Position numbers and translations under genes: made by a program | Notes under the pieces: model-generated | Told to the model about the DNA's origin: nothing | The model's input: only the letters and a program-made list of their open reading frames with translations | Database searches by the model: none | Part shown: positions 2-47,569 of the stretch, piece after piece | How the letters are laid out: every line of letters starts with the position of its first letter | How positions within the stretch are numbered: position 1 is the stretch's first letter | Assembly (NCBI GenBank): GCA_029432815.1 | Contig: JAROBA010000001.1 | Location: 62,001-126,000, forward strand | DNA length: 64,000 nucleotides | Reading direction: 5' to 3' | DNA from: Pontiellaceae bacterium B1224 | GTDB taxonomy: Bacteria > Verrucomicrobiota > Kiritimatiellia > Kiritimatiellales > Pontiellaceae

Positions 2-3000
2 AGCACGCTCGCAAACAACGTGGCTGGCAATGAAGGGGGCGGTATCCAAAACTTTGGCAACGCCACGTTCAACAACTCGACAATCGCCGGGAATAGTGCA
101 CCCAATAATGGAGGAGGGATTTACTCCGTCAGCTCCGCCAGTTCGGTCACGCTGAACAACTCCATTGTGGCAGGAAACACGGCACTTGCCGGGGCGGACA
201 TCTACGACAATGCCGACAATGGCCCCACCCACACCGTAGGGGAGAATATCGTGGGCAACGCAAGTGGATACACGATCAACTCAGGCACGGCTCCAATTAT
301 AGCCAATCCCCTGCTTGCTCCGCTCGGTGATTATGGCGGATTCACACCGACTATGCCTCCAATGGCAGGATCTCCAGCCATTGATGCGGGCGGAACGGCT
401 GACTTTTTTACTGATCAGCGCGGTTTGACCCGCATCGTAAACGGCACCGTGGATATCGGTGCGGTGGAAAGACAATTGCCGATTGTTTTAAATCTAGCCG
501 ATTCCGGATATGGTTCCCTACGCGATGTCATTAACTTTGCCGACAGCGGTACTACGGTAATCTTCACCAATGCGCTCTCCGGTGGAACGATCATCCTCAC
601 GAGCGGTCAGATCCTGATTGATAAGAATCTAGCCGTTGATGCCTCTACCCTGCCCGGTGGTATCACCATCGACGGCAACGGGTCTGTCACCGGCCAAAGG
701 GTTTTTGAGTTTATCGCCGGAACCACGAATACCCTCGACGCCCTCACCATTACCGGCGGACGAACGGCGGATGCAAACGACGGCTCCTCTGCCGAAAATG
801 GGGGCGGCATTCTGAATGCCGGCCATCTCACCTTGCTCAACTGCAACGTCACCAACAATAGCACGGGTAACGGCGGCAACGGTTTCGGCAGCAGCGGCAA
901 CGGCCATGGCGGCTTCGGCATCGGCCACTACGGCGGAAACGGTGGAGGAATCTACAATGTTTCCGGTTCCCTTAAACTGAAAGACTCAACCGTTTCGGGG
1001 AACTCCACGGGTAACGGCGGCGACGGCATCGGCGGCGACGGCAGCAATGGCGAAAACGGCGGCTTGGGCGATGGCGGGAACGGCGGCTTGGGCGGCGGGA
1101 TCTACAATGTTTCCGGATCCCTTACGCTTGAAAACTCGACCGTCTCGGGAAATTCCACGGGTGACGGCGGCAACGGAAATGGTGGAAATGGCGGCGATGG
1201 CGGCGGCACCTTTAACAGTGGCGGCGATGGCGGTGACGGCTTCGGCGGCAACGGTGGAAGTGGCGGCGGGCTCTACAGTGCTTCCGGCTCCCTTACACTG
1301 AAAAACTCGACCACTGCAGGGAACTCCACGGGCGGTGGCGGCTTTGGTCTCGGTGGTCCCCGCGGCATCGGCGGATCTCTCGCCAGTGACGGCGACAACG
1401 GCAGCGGAAGCTACGGCAGCGATGGCGACGGCGGCGGGATCTACAGCAGCCTCACATTGATGCTGGAAAATGCGACCATTTCAGGAAATACCGCAAGCGG
1501 CAATGGGGGTGGTGTGCTCTACTTCGACACGTTCAACAGTACCAACTCGATTATCGCCGGAAATTGGGCCGCTCAAAACCCGAACATCAATGGCTCGATC
1601 ACGGCCGGCTACAACAACCTCACCAACGGCATTCCCCAGCTCGCTCCACTGGGCAATTATGGAGGCCCGACATCCACCATGCCGCCGCTTCTCGGTTCCC
1701 CGGCCATCGATGCCGGCGGCATAACATCATTTGCCATCGACCAACGCGGCGCTCCACGCTTCGATAGCTTTTCCGACATCGGCGCCGTCGAATTTCAGCA
1801 GTTCATAGTCAACACCCTCGCCGATGAAACCGACGGAATTGATTTCAACGGAATTTCTCTGCGCGATGCCATCGTCTCCAATAATGAATTTCCGCCTTCC
1901 CTTATACTTTTCAGCCCAGCGCTTAGCAACGGTACCATCCTCTTAACCAACGGACAGTTCTTTGTAGAAGACACACTCACCATCGATGCCTCCTCCATTG
2001 GCGGCCTCACGATTGACGGCAACGCCGCAAACCGCATATTCGAGGTTTCCGGCTCTGACACCGTCGTAACGCTCAGCACGCTCACCCTGACCAACGGCCT
2101 GGCCACAGGTAACTATCCCGACAATCGCGGCGGCGCAATCTATCTGCACAGCGGGGCCGACCTGACCCTCAGCAACGCCGTCCTCTCCGGCAATACGGCG
2201 AATGACGACGGCGGCGGGATCTATAATGAATCAGGAACCCTGAGCCTGCTGGAGAGCACCCTCTCCGGCAATACGGCGAATGACATCGGCGGCGGGATCT
2301 ATAATGGCTATGGAACCCTGACCCTGCAGCAGAGCTCTCTCTCCGGTAATACGGCGAACAACGATGGCGGCGGCATCTTCAGCTCCACCTCAAGTGCTAA
2401 TGCCCCCATCACCTCCAGCACAACCCTGAATCAGTGTACGTTGACGGGCAACACCGCCGTTGATTCCGGAGGCGGAATGAGAAACTTTAACGGTTGGGTC
2501 TTTATGACCAACTGCACAATATCGGCCAATGCAGCACTGACCGGGGCCGGCGTCAGGACCTACGGCGACAACGCCACTGAAACCGTAGTGAACAACACCA
2601 TCATTGCCGGAAACCTGGGCGACGACCTTGGACTCGATGAAACCATCAACCCGAATGCTTTCCAGAGCGGGGGTGGCAACCTGATCGGCAACGGGACAGT
2701 CTCCTACTTCAGCGCCGCCGGAGACTCCACCAACCATACCGCCGCCTCCATCCGGCTCGCCCCGTTCGGCGACTATGGCGGCCCGACGCAAACCATGCCA
2801 CCTCTGCCCGGCTCCCCTGCCATCGATGCCGGCGGCATGACGATCTTCACCTACGATCAGCGCGGTTTAAACCGGGTCATGAATGGAGCCCTTGATATTG
2901 GAGCCGTTGAGATTCAGGATTTCAACGACACCTCCTCAATTATTTCCAGCGCATGGGCCACGGATACAGACAGCGACGGCAACCCCTTCGGCGTGGAATA

Positions 3001-3307
3001 TGCCCTTGGTACGGATTGGAATATTGCCGATAGAACCAACAGTGCTAATTTGGTCGCCCTTCCGGATGGCGGGGTGGTATTCGGGATTAATCTCGACGCG
3101 GAAGAACATACGGCGTGGATCATTAAACGTTCGCAAAATCTCGTAACCGATCCGTTTGTGGAGGTCTACCGCTATGATGGACCGACCTCGAGTTCCTCCG
3201 GCACGATTCCCGCGTTCGTAAACAAAACAGCGGATCACATCGAACTGAACGATCAATCCGGCGTCACCAACGCCTTCTACCTGTTCGAAGCCGAGTTAAA
3301 TTTATAA
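2..3307 (+). CDS. Giant secreted Gly-rich beta-helix protein, 5' end outside window
   Basis: The reading frame is open from the first bases of the window; the GTG at 20 is an internal codon, so the N-terminus lies upstream. About 1100 residues are visible. They consist of short repeats of the form GGGIYN..L.L.NSTVSGN, typical of right-handed parallel beta-helices of the pectin-lyase type, with very Gly/Asn-rich insertions encoded at about 860-1440. Three copies of a module with LAP.GDYGG, GSPAIDAGG, DQRG and DIGAVE occur (about 300-470, 1640-1790 and 2755-2915), as in proteins with a 'choice-of-anchor Q' domain. The C-terminus carries a DTDSDGNPFGVEYALGTD calcium-type motif and ends in a strand-rich domain seen in Verrucomicrobia-type surface proteins. 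It is probably secreted or surface-attached. No catalytic motif is visible, so the role is unknown; adhesin or matrix protein is an inference. Confidence 0.8.
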   Translation, partial: STLANNVAGNEGGGIQNFGNATFNNSTIAGNSAPNNGGGIYSVSSASSVTLNNSIVAGNTALAGADIYDNADNGPTHTVGENIVGNASGYTINSGTAPIIANPLLAPLGDYGGFTPTMPPMAGSPAIDAGGTADFFTDQRGLTRIVNGTVDIGAVERQLPIVLNLADSGYGSLRDVINFADSGTTVIFTNALSGGTIILTSGQILIDKNLAVDASTLPGGITIDGNGSVTGQRVFEFIAGTTNTLDALTITGGRTADANDGSSAENGGGILNAGHLTLLNCNVTNNSTGNGGNGFGSSGNGHGGFGIGHYGGNGGGIYNVSGSLKLKDSTVSGNSTGNGGDGIGGDGSNGENGGLGDGGNGGLGGGIYNVSGSLTLENSTVSGNSTGDGGNGNGGNGGDGGGTFNSGGDGGDGFGGNGGSGGGLYSASGSLTLKNSTTAGNSTGGGGFGLGGPRGIGGSLASDGDNGSGSYGSDGDGGGIYSSLTLMLENATISGNTASGNGGGVLYFDTFNSTNSIIAGNWAAQNPNINGSITAGYNNLTNGIPQLAPLGNYGGPTSTMPPLLGSPAIDAGGITSFAIDQRGAPRFDSFSDIGAVEFQQFIVNTLADETDGIDFNGISLRDAIVSNNEFPPSLILFSPALSNGTILLTNGQFFVEDTLTIDASSIGGLTIDGNAANRIFEVSGSDTVVTLSTLTLTNGLATGNYPDNRGGAIYLHSGADLTLSNAVLSGNTANDDGGGIYNESGTLSLLESTLSGNTANDIGGGIYNGYGTLTLQQSSLSGNTANNDGGGIFSSTSSANAPITSSTTLNQCTLTGNTAVDSGGGMRNFNGWVFMTNCTISANAALTGAGVRTYGDNATETVVNNTIIAGNLGDDLGLDETINPNAFQSGGGNLIGNGTVSYFSAAGDSTNHTAASIRLAPFGDYGGPTQTMPPLPGSPAIDAGGMTIFTYDQRGLNRVMNGALDIGAVEIQDFNDTSSIISSAWATDTDSDGNPFGVEYALGTDWNIADRTNSANLVALPDGGVVFGINLDAEEHTAWIIKRSQNLVTDPFVEVYRYDGPTSSSSGTIPAFVNKTADHIELNDQSGVTNAFYLFEAELNL

Positions 3308-3448: not shown

Positions 3449-3523
3449 GTAGCCGAGGTCGTCGACCTCGGTGCGGATGCAAAGCCATTCCACCGAGCTG
3501 CGGGGTCATGGCCCCCGCCCTAC
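3449..3523. repeat. REP pair, copy B
   Basis: GTAG plus an 8-bp-arm hairpin (CCGAGGTC/GACCTCGG) at the left. At the right, on the opposite strand, is GTAG plus a GCGGGG/CCCCGC hairpin. The two face each other as in a BIME. This copy abuts the 3' end of the RAYT pseudogene. Confidence 0.85.
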
Positions 3524-3994
3524 AGGTGCCCATGCGTGATCGCGGACACTTAGACTATAATCAATATGCCCGGAATAGTTCCAATCATTGGAATCTTCAG
3601 CCAACCCTACCCGTACCGGATTCTGCCGAACATATTCCCATTTCTCGGAATAGGATTCGTTGGAACGAATCAGATGGTCAAATAATTCCTTCTGCCAAAA
3701 TGGCGCGTTAACCCGAGCAGAGGACACAGCTCTTTTGCCGTCCATTGCTTCCACGATCCTATCATTCTCGAAAGGGGCGTCCGGCTTTCTGCATCGGCAC
3801 AGAAGAAATGGACATGATCCGGCATAACGACATACGAACCAATCGCCCAGCCGTAGAGATTGAATGATTTCGCCCAATGCCGGCGCAGCATTTCGTGAAC
3901 GCCTGGGCGCAATAAAAGATCCCGGCGTTTATTTACGCAAAACGTAATAAAATATCGCGGGTGTGATTCGCTGTAGATGTTTACGTTCCTTCAT
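3506..3994 (-). pseudogene. REP-associated tyrosine transposase (RAYT, IS200-like Y1 family), frameshifted
   Basis: Reading from ATG at 3994 (Shine-Dalgarno GGAGGG just upstream), the three frames together give a RAYT of about 163 residues. The start is MKERKHLQRI. Next comes FITFCVNKRRDLLLRPGVHEML and the HUH metal site in VMPDHVHFF. The C-terminal block is FWQKELFDHLIRS and YVRQNPVRVGL. The ATG frame and the C-terminal frame are the same, but the central segment, including the HUH motif, is in another frame. The ATG frame meets a stop near 3930. Two offsetting frameshifts (near 3950 and near 3730) therefore inactivate it. It lies between REP pairs, the usual setting for a RAYT. The 15-bp palindrome TTCCAATCATTGGAA is inside the 3' part. 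Confidence 0.8.
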
Positions 3995-4970: not shown

Positions 4971-6116
4971 TCACCTCGTTTTATAGTCTGTTACCTGTTC
5001 TTCAATCCGCAATCTTTCCTTGCGGAGTTCAGCTTCCAGCTGTTCTTTTGTCGGTAAAACCAGCTGATATTTTGCGGCAAATATCTGTTCGTTCTCTTCG
5101 CCTAAAATGTAGCGAACCACAGCATCGTTCTTCTCCGTACAAAGCAAGAGGCCGACGGTCGGGTTATCATCTTCTCCGGCTATTTCCCGGTCGAAATAAT
5201 TTACGTAAAGTTGCATCTGCCCCACATCGCCATGCGTTAGCTTTTGTGTTTTCAAATCGACAACCACGTAGCACTTTAAGCGGATGTGATAGAAAATCAA
5301 ATCCGGGTAAAAATGATCCCCGTCCAATGTGATCCGCATTTGCCGTGCAACAAACGCAAACCCCTGCCCCAGTTCCAACAGGAATTGTTGCAACGTTGAA
5401 ATCAATGCATCTTCAAGCGCACTCTCGGAAAGTTCGTGGGATTCAGGCAGATCAAGGAATTCCAGTACATACGGGTCTTTAATAACGTCTATCGGCCGTA
5501 GCGCTCCCGGCTCCGCTTCCAGTTGCGCCTGCATCTTTTCCTGCTCCTTGCTCTTCAGCAGGCGCTCGAAAAATAGCGAATGGATCTGACGTTCAAGCTG
5601 CCGAACGCTCCAACCATTGGAAGCGGCTTCGCGCTCATAATACGCACGCGCCGCCGGATGCTCCACCCGCATCAGCGCCCGATAGTGCGACCAACCCAGT
5701 GCTGGCATGAATCCTGCCGAATTCGCTACACAGTGTGTAGCGAATTCGGCAGGATGTGTGCCACCGACAGATTCTAGATTGTCTACACACTGTGTAGACA
5801 ATTCAGATCCTCTCTCTACGGAACGCTCTATGAAAACTAGGTAAAACTGGCGAAAGAGCTTTAAATTCGCAACTGAAAACCCTTTTCCGAAACGCTTGTT
5901 CAATTGAAAAGAAAGCCGATTCATCAGCTCACTTGCATATCCTGCCCGTTCTTCTCCTGCCTGAATTTCCTCCACAATTTCGCGACCAATCAGCCAATAG
6001 GCGGCAACCATTTCAGAATTAACAGTACGAACGACATTCGTTCGCGCCTGATCGAGAATGCTGACTACACGACCGAAGAGATCGTCACTATTAAAGGTTG
6101 AAGGGTTTCCAGACAT
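4971..6116 (-). CDS. PDDEXK nuclease family protein (DUF1016, YhcG-like)
   Basis: A 381-residue protein starting at the ATG at 6116 (Shine-Dalgarno AAAGGA); a longer reading would overlap dut and has no ribosome site. The N-terminal DUF1016 helical domain (about 10-200) has YWLIGREIVEE and LGWSHYRALMRV. The C-terminal PDDEXK nuclease domain (about 225-345) has FYPDLIFYH and VVVDLK, giving the Asp and the D-x-K pair. These proteins are thought to be DNA nucleases linked to mobile elements or recombination repair. Residues about 104-138 are a low-conservation linker whose DNA is made of two perfect palindromes. The first residues (MSGNPSTF) resemble those of RadC downstream (MSGNADTL) because both start codons sit in a copy of the same palindrome. 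Confidence 0.88.
   Translation of the reverse strand: MSGNPSTFNSDDLFGRVVSILDQARTNVVRTVNSEMVAAYWLIGREIVEEIQAGEERAGYASELMNRLSFQLNKRFGKGFSVANLKLFRQFYLVFIERSVERGSELSTQCVDNLESVGGTHPAEFATHCVANSAGFMPALGWSHYRALMRVEHPAARAYYEREAASNGWSVRQLERQIHSLFFERLLKSKEQEKMQAQLEAEPGALRPIDVIKDPYVLEFLDLPESHELSESALEDALISTLQQFLLELGQGFAFVARQMRITLDGDHFYPDLIFYHIRLKCYVVVDLKTQKLTHGDVGQMQLYVNYFDREIAGEDDNPTVGLLLCTEKNDAVVRYILGEENEQIFAAKYQLVLPTKEQLEAELRKERLRIEEQVTDYKTR
5711..5755. repeat. 45-bp perfect palindrome inside DUF1016 gene
   Basis: Two 22-bp arms (ATCCTGCCGAATTCGCTACA plus two more bases and the complement) are separated by a single base. It encodes roughly residues 120-135 of the linker between the two protein domains, in frame and without stops. 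Confidence 0.95.
5778..5802. repeat. 25-bp perfect palindrome inside DUF1016 gene
   Basis: Arms ATTGTCTACACA and TGTGTAGACAAT with a one-base centre, 22 bp from the 45-bp palindrome. Both share the CTACACA/TGTGTAG core, suggesting a common origin. Confidence 0.95.
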
Positions 6117-47539: not shown

Positions 47540-47569
47540 AAACAGGGCCTGAATGAATCATTCAGGCCC
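47540..47569 (-). terminator. Rho-independent terminator of the LPP20-like lipoprotein gene
   Basis: GGGCCTGAAT and ATTCAGGCCC pair around a 5-base loop. On the minus strand TGTTTTT follows. It is about 28 bp beyond the stop codon; a palindrome copy (47581-47595) is immediately after the stop. Confidence 0.88.

What the first reader, a model, noticed from the sequence alone, without database searches (positions are those of the whole stretch)
5711..5802. Two perfect palindromes inside the coding sequence of the DUF1016 nuclease
A 45-bp palindrome (22-bp arms, 1-bp centre) and a 25-bp palindrome sharing the CTACACA core lie 22 bp apart in the linker region of a nuclease gene, in frame. Perfect palindromes of this size are unstable and are unlikely to survive by chance. 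They may be recognition or autoregulation sites, an inserted mini-element, or a product of phase-variable expansion in the linker.
Basis: partly seen in the sequence, partly recalled or inferred. Interest (0 to 1): 0.65.

Follow-up and report, generated by a model that had tools for sequence, protein, structure and literature searches.

The report
Nuclease gene carrying its own binding sites
The two palindromes are members of a DNA element found inside nearly all genes of a widespread bacterial and archaeal nuclease family (E. coli yhcG included), and their sequence co-varies, base by amino acid, with the DNA-reading residues of the protein made from the same gene, so each gene seems to carry the private binding site of its own product.

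Summary
They are not an oddity of this gene. In 292 of 340 non-redundant DUF1016 genes (several bacterial phyla and archaea) the same linker carries 1-5 palindromes of one architecture, (A/G)ATT-N7-C-R-S-Y-G-N7-AAT(T/C), of gene-specific sequence. There are 403, against 17-24 after synonymous-codon permutation, at 9.7/kb versus 0.2/kb in the rest of the genes. Outside DUF1016 genes such sites are almost absent. Pairing is Watson-Crick (93%, G.T 1%), which points to a DNA element. The decisive result: half-site bases co-vary with protein residues encoded outside the linker (R172:C, V/L171:A, K/R171:C, T143:G, R146:C, R83:G, E86:C, K/R86:G, aromatic86:T). Leave-relatives-out prediction reaches 98% at one position; tree-based tests give p down to 1e-8. 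Residues 143 and 146 align with DNA-contact positions of ParB; the N-terminal domain is a ParB-type HTH that the site-encoded linker interrupts. I conclude that the palindromes are cognate binding sites of the protein encoded by the same gene. Autoregulation is the likeliest consequence but is inferred; no binding was measured. No earlier description turned up in the open-access library searched.

The parts
4971..6116 (-). DUF1016/YhcG gene (381 aa): split ParB-like HTH domain + PD-(D/E)XK nuclease domain
   Evidence: Pfam PF17761 and PF06250; PADLOC PDC-S02 E 4.7e-140; AlphaFold2 model pLDDT 84.5
5711..5755 (.). 45-bp perfect palindrome; its inner 25 bp (5721-5745, ATTCGCTACACAGTGTGTAGCGAAT) is the family's element
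   Evidence: the outer extension is shared with close relatives L004, L005, L007
5778..5802 (.). second element, 25-bp perfect palindrome, same inner half-site, outer half-site changed on both arms
5694..5828 (-). codons of linker residues ~97-141 in which both palindromes lie; low model confidence, peptide not conserved
5835..5873 (-). helix 82-94; residues 83 and 86 co-vary with outer half-site bases d7 and d8
5673..5693 (-). helix 142-148; residues 143 and 146 co-vary with inner bases d3 and d4; align with ParB 201 and 204
5580..5606 (-). helix 171-179; residues 171 and 172 co-vary with d3 and d1/d2
5070..5426 (-). PD-(D/E)XK nuclease core (residues 231-349), active-site D272, D287, K289 present
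   Evidence: fold match EndoMS/NucS Z 11.8

Best explanation
The palindromes are cognate DNA-binding sites of the very protein in whose gene they lie. The DUF1016_N domain is a ParB/Noc-type helix-turn-helix domain with DNA-reading helices on both sides of a disordered linker: helix 82-94 reads the outer half-site (d7, d8), and helices 142-148 and 171-179 read the inner half-site (d1-d4). Two protein subunits would read the two arms, so the site must be a palindrome. The DNA of the site doubles as the coding sequence of the linker, so site and reader travel and evolve together. Shown here by sequence analysis: conservation of the DNA element, its confinement to these genes, and its residue-base co-variation. 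Inferred: physical binding. Likeliest consequence (my probability about 0.45): the protein returns to its own gene and limits its expression, a portable in-gene operator for a mobile candidate defence nuclease. Whether the nuclease also cuts there is open. The confidence below is for the self-recognition claim.
For: 292 of 340 non-redundant genes have the element; 403 sites vs 17-24 after synonymous permutation; 9.67 vs 0.21 per kb outside the linker. Sites matching the architecture are almost confined to DUF1016 genes in 9 whole genomes. Position by position, the top-ranked protein column lies outside the linker for each of d2, d3, d4, d7 and d8, with familiar chemistry: R172:C 149/150, N172:A 25/29, K/R171:C 68/69, R146:C 86/90, R83:G 80/81, E86:C 35/36, aromatic or small 86:T. 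Predicted from genes under 50% identical: d3 98% vs 55% for the nearest relative, d7 80% vs 40%, d8 79% vs 38%, d4 77% vs 59%. Tree-independent pairs: d8=G~K/R86 27:0.2 p 1.5e-8; d7=G~R/K83 25:0 p 6e-8; d8=T~hydrophobic or small 86 24:0 p 1e-7; d3=A~V/L/I/F/Y171 13:0 p 2e-4. Paralogues in one genome have different half-sites in 38 of 40 pairs. ParB-HTH kinship: Pfam HTH_ParB hit in 31 of 76 members, best E 1.2e-4; hhalign probability 95%, E 2.7e-8, score 50 vs 9-16 in shuffled controls; Noc/ParB DNA-binding domains Z 7.2-8.0. S143 and R146 align with ParB 201 and 204; both contact parS in the crystal structure (PMC7383237). The window gene itself obeys the code. Extra perfect copies with the gene's own inner core lie upstream in L101 and L097 and 3' of yhcG in all E. 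coli alleles checked.
Against: No binding, expression or cleavage was measured. About 14% of genes have no detected site. In most genes no site was found at the promoter, which a classical operator would have. Copies in one gene differ at d5-d9 yet stay palindromic, more symmetry than half-site reading needs, so a cruciform or an arm-copying mutation process may also act. d2~172 is not significant on the tree. The apparent d9~139 link is trivial (same codon) and was dropped. The ParB HTH hit of the window protein (17.4 bits) is below Pfam's cut-off (22.6).
Confidence: 0.8

Rival explanations
1. The sites are cleavage targets: the nuclease cuts DNA that carries its own address, for example rival or incoming copies of the same element (exclusion), or its own locus to promote recombination or transfer.
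For: PD-(D/E)XK residues D272, D/E287, K289 are kept in 223-225 of 225 site-bearing genes. The family is common on plasmids (459 records), in viral contigs and is a candidate defence family. Addresses are private to each gene.
Against: The only sites found in the genome lie in the gene itself, so unconditional cutting would be suicidal; no protecting partner was identified.
Confidence: 0.25
2. The element acts as a DNA hairpin or cruciform: the stem is read by the protein and the structure itself, extruded in supercoiled or single-stranded DNA, is what is bound or cut.
For: When copies in one gene differ at d5-d7, both remain paired in 74 of 82 cases. Sites found by d1-d4 alone are paired at d5-d8 in 80-85% although 23-37% of bases differ from the sister copy. 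d1 is not paired more than expected, as in a loop. E. coli alleles differ by three consecutive compensated pairs.
Against: Two identical readers on B-DNA explain most of the symmetry; arm-copying during replication also makes compensated changes; several sites are only 19-25 bp.
Confidence: 0.2
3. The palindromes act as RNA hairpins in the mRNA (pausing, stability or mRNA autoregulation).
For: They lie in a transcribed, translated region and can fold as hairpins.
Against: G.T pairs are 1.2% of stem pairs, fewer than A.C 2.5%, where RNA stems tolerate G.U; the centre is strand-symmetric; the amino-acid code includes hydrophobic-thymine matches and a DNA-binding fold; some copies lie outside the ORF.
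Confidence: 0.04
4. A selfish or mobile palindromic repeat (like Rickettsia palindromic elements or REPs) that lands in frame in this gene.
For: In-frame palindromes in coding DNA are known from Rickettsia (described in PMC4316617); a REP-transposase-like remnant lies nearby (3506-3912).
Against: Not dispersed: the sites are absent elsewhere in the genome, and always in the same linker of one gene family with a different sequence in each gene.
Confidence: 0.03

Closest known systems
ParB-parS and Noc-NBS (partition and nucleoid occlusion)
   Same: HTH domain of the same type; palindromic site; DNA-contact residues at equivalent positions (201, 204); specificity changed by few residues (PMC7383237). 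One parS site lies inside the B. subtilis spo0J/parB gene (own knowledge, not verified here).
   Different: No Pfam hit to a ParB CTPase domain in DUF1016; the HTH is split by a linker that the site encodes; PD-(D/E)XK nuclease attached; sites sit almost only in the own gene and differ in almost every gene, whereas parS is nearly uniform across bacteria (own knowledge).
REP palindromes and RAYT transposases
   Same: Palindromes matched to a DNA-processing enzyme encoded nearby (REP-associated transposases: PMC2817692; REPINs: PMC3116915; abstracts only).
   Different: REPs are extragenic and present in many copies; the DUF1016 site is intragenic, 1-5 copies, and the enzyme is PD-(D/E)XK, not HUH/Y1.
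Rickettsia palindromic elements
   Same: Palindromic DNA in frame inside protein-coding genes.
   Different: About 100-150 nt, dispersed among coding and intergenic DNA (described in PMC4316617); here one gene family, one place, and no dispersal.
DUF1016/YhcG (PADLOC candidate PDC-S02)
   Same: The window protein is a clear member.
   Different: I found no description of sites inside the genes or of a ParB-type DNA-reading domain in the open-access papers searched.

Membership tests
DUF1016/YhcG nuclease family | Matches to DUF1016_N and YhcG_C above Pfam cut-offs | tested here: met
   135.4 bits (cut-off 32.8) and 197.3 bits (cut-off 32.5)
DUF1016/YhcG nuclease family | PD-(D/E)XK active-site residues | tested here: met
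   D272, D/E287, K289 in 223-225 of 225 site-bearing genes; NucS/EndoMS fold match Z 11.8
ParB-type HTH domain (PF17762) | Pfam match above curated cut-off | tested here: not met
   window protein 17.4 bits, cut-off 22.6, E 0.0049; 31 of 76 members match, best E 1.2e-4
ParB-type HTH domain (PF17762) | Profile and fold kinship with ParB/Noc DNA-binding domains | tested here: inconclusive
   hhalign 95%, E 2.7e-8 over 37 columns, controls score 9-16 vs 50; VIA-align Z 7.2-8.0 to Noc/ParB over ~100 residues, middling for a helical domain
ParB protein | N-terminal ParB CTPase domain | tested here: not met
   no such Pfam match among the families shown for the 76 members scanned
Autoregulatory operator | Own product binds the site | tested here: inconclusive
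   co-variation of site and reader supports it; no binding assay
Autoregulatory operator | Binding changes expression of the gene | not testable with these tools
   needs reporter assays
Autoregulatory operator | Site at the promoter | tested here: not met
   a few genes only (L097, L101, L072, L050)
Mobile palindromic repeat (RPE, REP) | Many copies dispersed in the genome | tested here: not met
   2 sites in the window genome, both in this gene; 8 further genomes: palindromic sites in DUF1016 genes or one DUF1016 remnant
RNA hairpin element | G.U pairs tolerated on the RNA strand | tested here: not met
   G.T 37, A.C 79, other mismatches 107, Watson-Crick 2921; no Rfam match

The most novel reading that the evidence does not exclude
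A self-addressed nuclease: each gene encodes a site-specific PD-(D/E)XK enzyme whose only cognate target in the cell is written inside (or beside) its own open reading frame, so that address and reader diversify together into many private pairs. The enzyme acts on DNA carrying that address (self-limitation, exclusion of sibling elements, or self-promoted transfer).
Probability: 0.3. Interest if true: 0.95.

Novelty: categorically new. Interest (0 to 1): 0.88.

Why it matters
A protein-DNA recognition code can be read straight from genome sequence because reader and site are physically linked in one gene, and it is testable in E. coli K-12 (yhcG). It gives a first concrete handle on a common nuclease family of unknown function that is listed as a candidate phage-defence system, shows DNA-level selection strong enough to dictate the amino-acid sequence of a linker, and offers hundreds of naturally different ParB-like reader/site pairs.

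Tried and rejected
Dispersed repeat: rejected. RNA element: no G.U bias, no Rfam match. Peptide selection as the cause: synonymous permutation removes the palindromes. An early hint of strand asymmetry (A.C > G.T; C centre > G centre) was not taken as evidence, because codon constraints can explain it. The d9~residue 139 association was dropped as trivial: residue 139 is encoded by the end of the site in short linkers. The within/between-copy comparison is biased because sites were detected by pairing, so it was repeated with sites found by d1-d4 only. Viral scans with single proteins gave almost nothing. Literature on in-gene operators: no hit. The first Foldseek search on the weaker model showed only nuclease matches. 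No solved DUF1016 structure was found.

Full report
Observation. The gene on the minus strand (4971-6116) is a DUF1016_N + YhcG_C nuclease, listed by PADLOC as phage-defence candidate PDC-S02. In the whole 5.38-Mb genome the core CTACACA-N-TGTGTAG occurs only at these two places. Of nine places that fit ATT-N7-CA-N-TG-N7-AAT, only these two are palindromic.

From one gene to a family. DUF1016 genes from related genomes turned out to have palindromes of other sequences in the same linker, between the motifs FRxFY and L-WSHY. I then collected genes from many kinds of bacteria and archaea, plus viral contigs. In 340 non-redundant genes, 292 carry at least one element: 403 in all, 9.67 per kb of linker against 0.21 per kb in the rest of the same genes. 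Five synonymous-codon permutations gave 17-24. An earlier, stricter count was 63 palindromes in the linkers against none in 80 kb of the remaining gene, and 0.45 on average after permutation. The peptide differs widely (IRQTVSDE, YALRRE, PPGRE, THCVAN and others) and the codon frame can change (376, 13 and 4 sites), so the conserved object is the DNA.

Anatomy of the element. Centred on position 0 the consensus is R-A-W-W (d13-d10), N4 (d9-d6), mostly A at d5, gene-specific d4 and d3, mostly C at d2, and R-S-Y in the centre, then the mirror image. R-S-Y is seen in 345 of 393 sites, and stems are 92.9% Watson-Crick with 1.2% G.T and 2.5% A.C. This and the strand symmetry point to DNA, not RNA. 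Adjacent copies in a gene agree at d3-d4 in 81-83% of cases against 30-35% between genes. Where d5-d7 differ, both copies are still paired in 74 of 82 cases. With sites found by d1-d4 alone, d5-d8 remain paired in 80-85%.

Micro-evolution in E. coli. K-12 yhcG has three elements in its linker. Other E. coli alleles show three consecutive compensated changes in the first element, an in-frame deletion of the second and third (28RC1), and in K-12 itself a single broken pair. A fourth perfect element sits just after the stop codon in the alleles examined, again with compensated differences; that 66-bp stretch is found in 3,670 E. coli genomes.

Confinement. In eight other genomes the loose pattern has 18 places. 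The palindromic ones lie in DUF1016 genes, except one in a mini-ORF that is itself a DUF1016 remnant (linker plus extreme C-terminus) between type III modification and restriction genes (L178). Paralogues in one genome carry different half-sites in 38 of 40 pairs. A few genes have an extra copy upstream with the gene's own inner core: L097 and L101 identical over about 27 bp, L072 and L050 similar.

Reader and site co-vary. Among pairs of genes matched for overall identity, residues 143 and 171 are the protein columns that most depend on whether the site core differs. Done base by base (225 genes), the top column is 172 for d1 and d2, 143 and 171 for d3, 146 for d4, 83 for d7 and 86 for d8. 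The pairs follow familiar side-chain chemistry: arginine or lysine with a G on one strand (R172, R146, K/R171, R83, K/R86), N172 with A, E86 with C, bulky hydrophobic residues with A:T pairs. Trained only on genes under 50% identical, the two-residue rule predicts d3 in 98% of genes (nearest relative 55%, commonest base 40%); d7 80%, d8 79% and d4 77% also beat relatedness. d2 does not clearly do so. On a tree built without these columns, independent contrasts go the predicted way almost without exception, for example 27 to 0.2 for d8=G with K/R86. These residues are encoded outside the site; residue 139, which is not, was dropped. The window gene obeys the code at every position: R172:C, S143/V171:A, R146:C, A83:C, K86:G or T.

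AlphaFold2 (76 sequences, pLDDT 84.5) places 83/86, 143/146 and 171/172 at the starts of three helices (82-94, 142-148, 171-179), with a low-confidence linker between the first and second. The nuclease core matches EndoMS/NucS (Z 11.8); the N-terminal part matches DNA-binding domains of Noc and ParB (Z 7.2-8.0, middling by itself). Independently, 31 of 76 members hit Pfam HTH_ParB, and profile comparison aligns residues 140-176 with the ParB motif LSxGHAR...GLSVR (95%, E 2.7e-8, score 50 against 9-16 in shuffled controls). In that alignment S143 and R146 fall on ParB 201 and 204 (the G and R of GHAR), contact positions in the ParB-parS crystal structure, and 201 is one of four residues that set ParB/Noc specificity (PMC7383237). 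The assignment by co-variation and the alignment by homology thus agree.

Mechanism. Shown by analysis: a DNA element under strong selection, private to each gene, co-evolving with the DNA-reading residues of the protein of that gene. Inferred: the protein binds it, probably as a dimer, one subunit per arm. Less certain: the purpose. I favour self-limitation of expression through in-gene operators, because the arrangement lets a horizontally moving gene carry its own brake. Cleavage of address-bearing DNA (exclusion or self-promoted transfer) and a cruciform form of the site are open rivals. The excess symmetry at d5-d9 is not fully explained by half-site reading.

Novelty. Searches of an open-access library found no description of these sites or of a ParB-like domain in DUF1016; subscription journals are mostly missing from it. 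The parts have known relatives (ParB-parS, PD-(D/E)XK nucleases); the combination of private sites inside the gene, doubling as the linker of their own reader, I know from nowhere else.

Noticed in passing
window 3506-3912 (-): Two fragments in different frames match a REP-associated tyrosine transposase (NF047646) below cut-off: a frameshifted RAYT-like remnant two genes away from the palindromes; no link to them was found.
   Followed up: partly
window 47545-47569: A 25-bp perfect palindrome GGGCCTGAATGAATCATTCAGGCCC, the only other one of this strength in the window; it lacks the DUF1016 architecture.
   Followed up: no
L178 (G062:C27:23500-28500), about 2518-2677: Mini-ORF made of a DUF1016 linker with several palindromes plus the extreme C-terminus, both folded domains missing, between type III modification and restriction genes: a remnant that kept the sites.
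   Followed up: partly
L168 near 8334 and L171 near 4001 (E. coli ATCC 8739 and DY612): Truncations of yhcG at, or within a few bases of, its third palindrome, with a transposase gene alongside (IS1B in DY612); possibly palindrome-linked breakage or insertion preference.
   Followed up: no
L167, just 3' of yhcG (K-12): A perfect 25-bp element in non-coding DNA between convergent yhcG and nanQ, present in all intact E. coli alleles looked at; it could be a further site or double as a terminator.
   Followed up: partly
L167 (K-12 yhcG): The K-12 sequence has one broken pair in its first element and R instead of W before the STY motif (residue 142 of the window protein), unlike most other strains checked: the laboratory allele may be impaired.
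   Followed up: no
window 20-3307 (+): Long repeat-rich ORF with many NSTxSGN-type repeats, like a beta-helix surface protein, starting near the window start.
   Followed up: no
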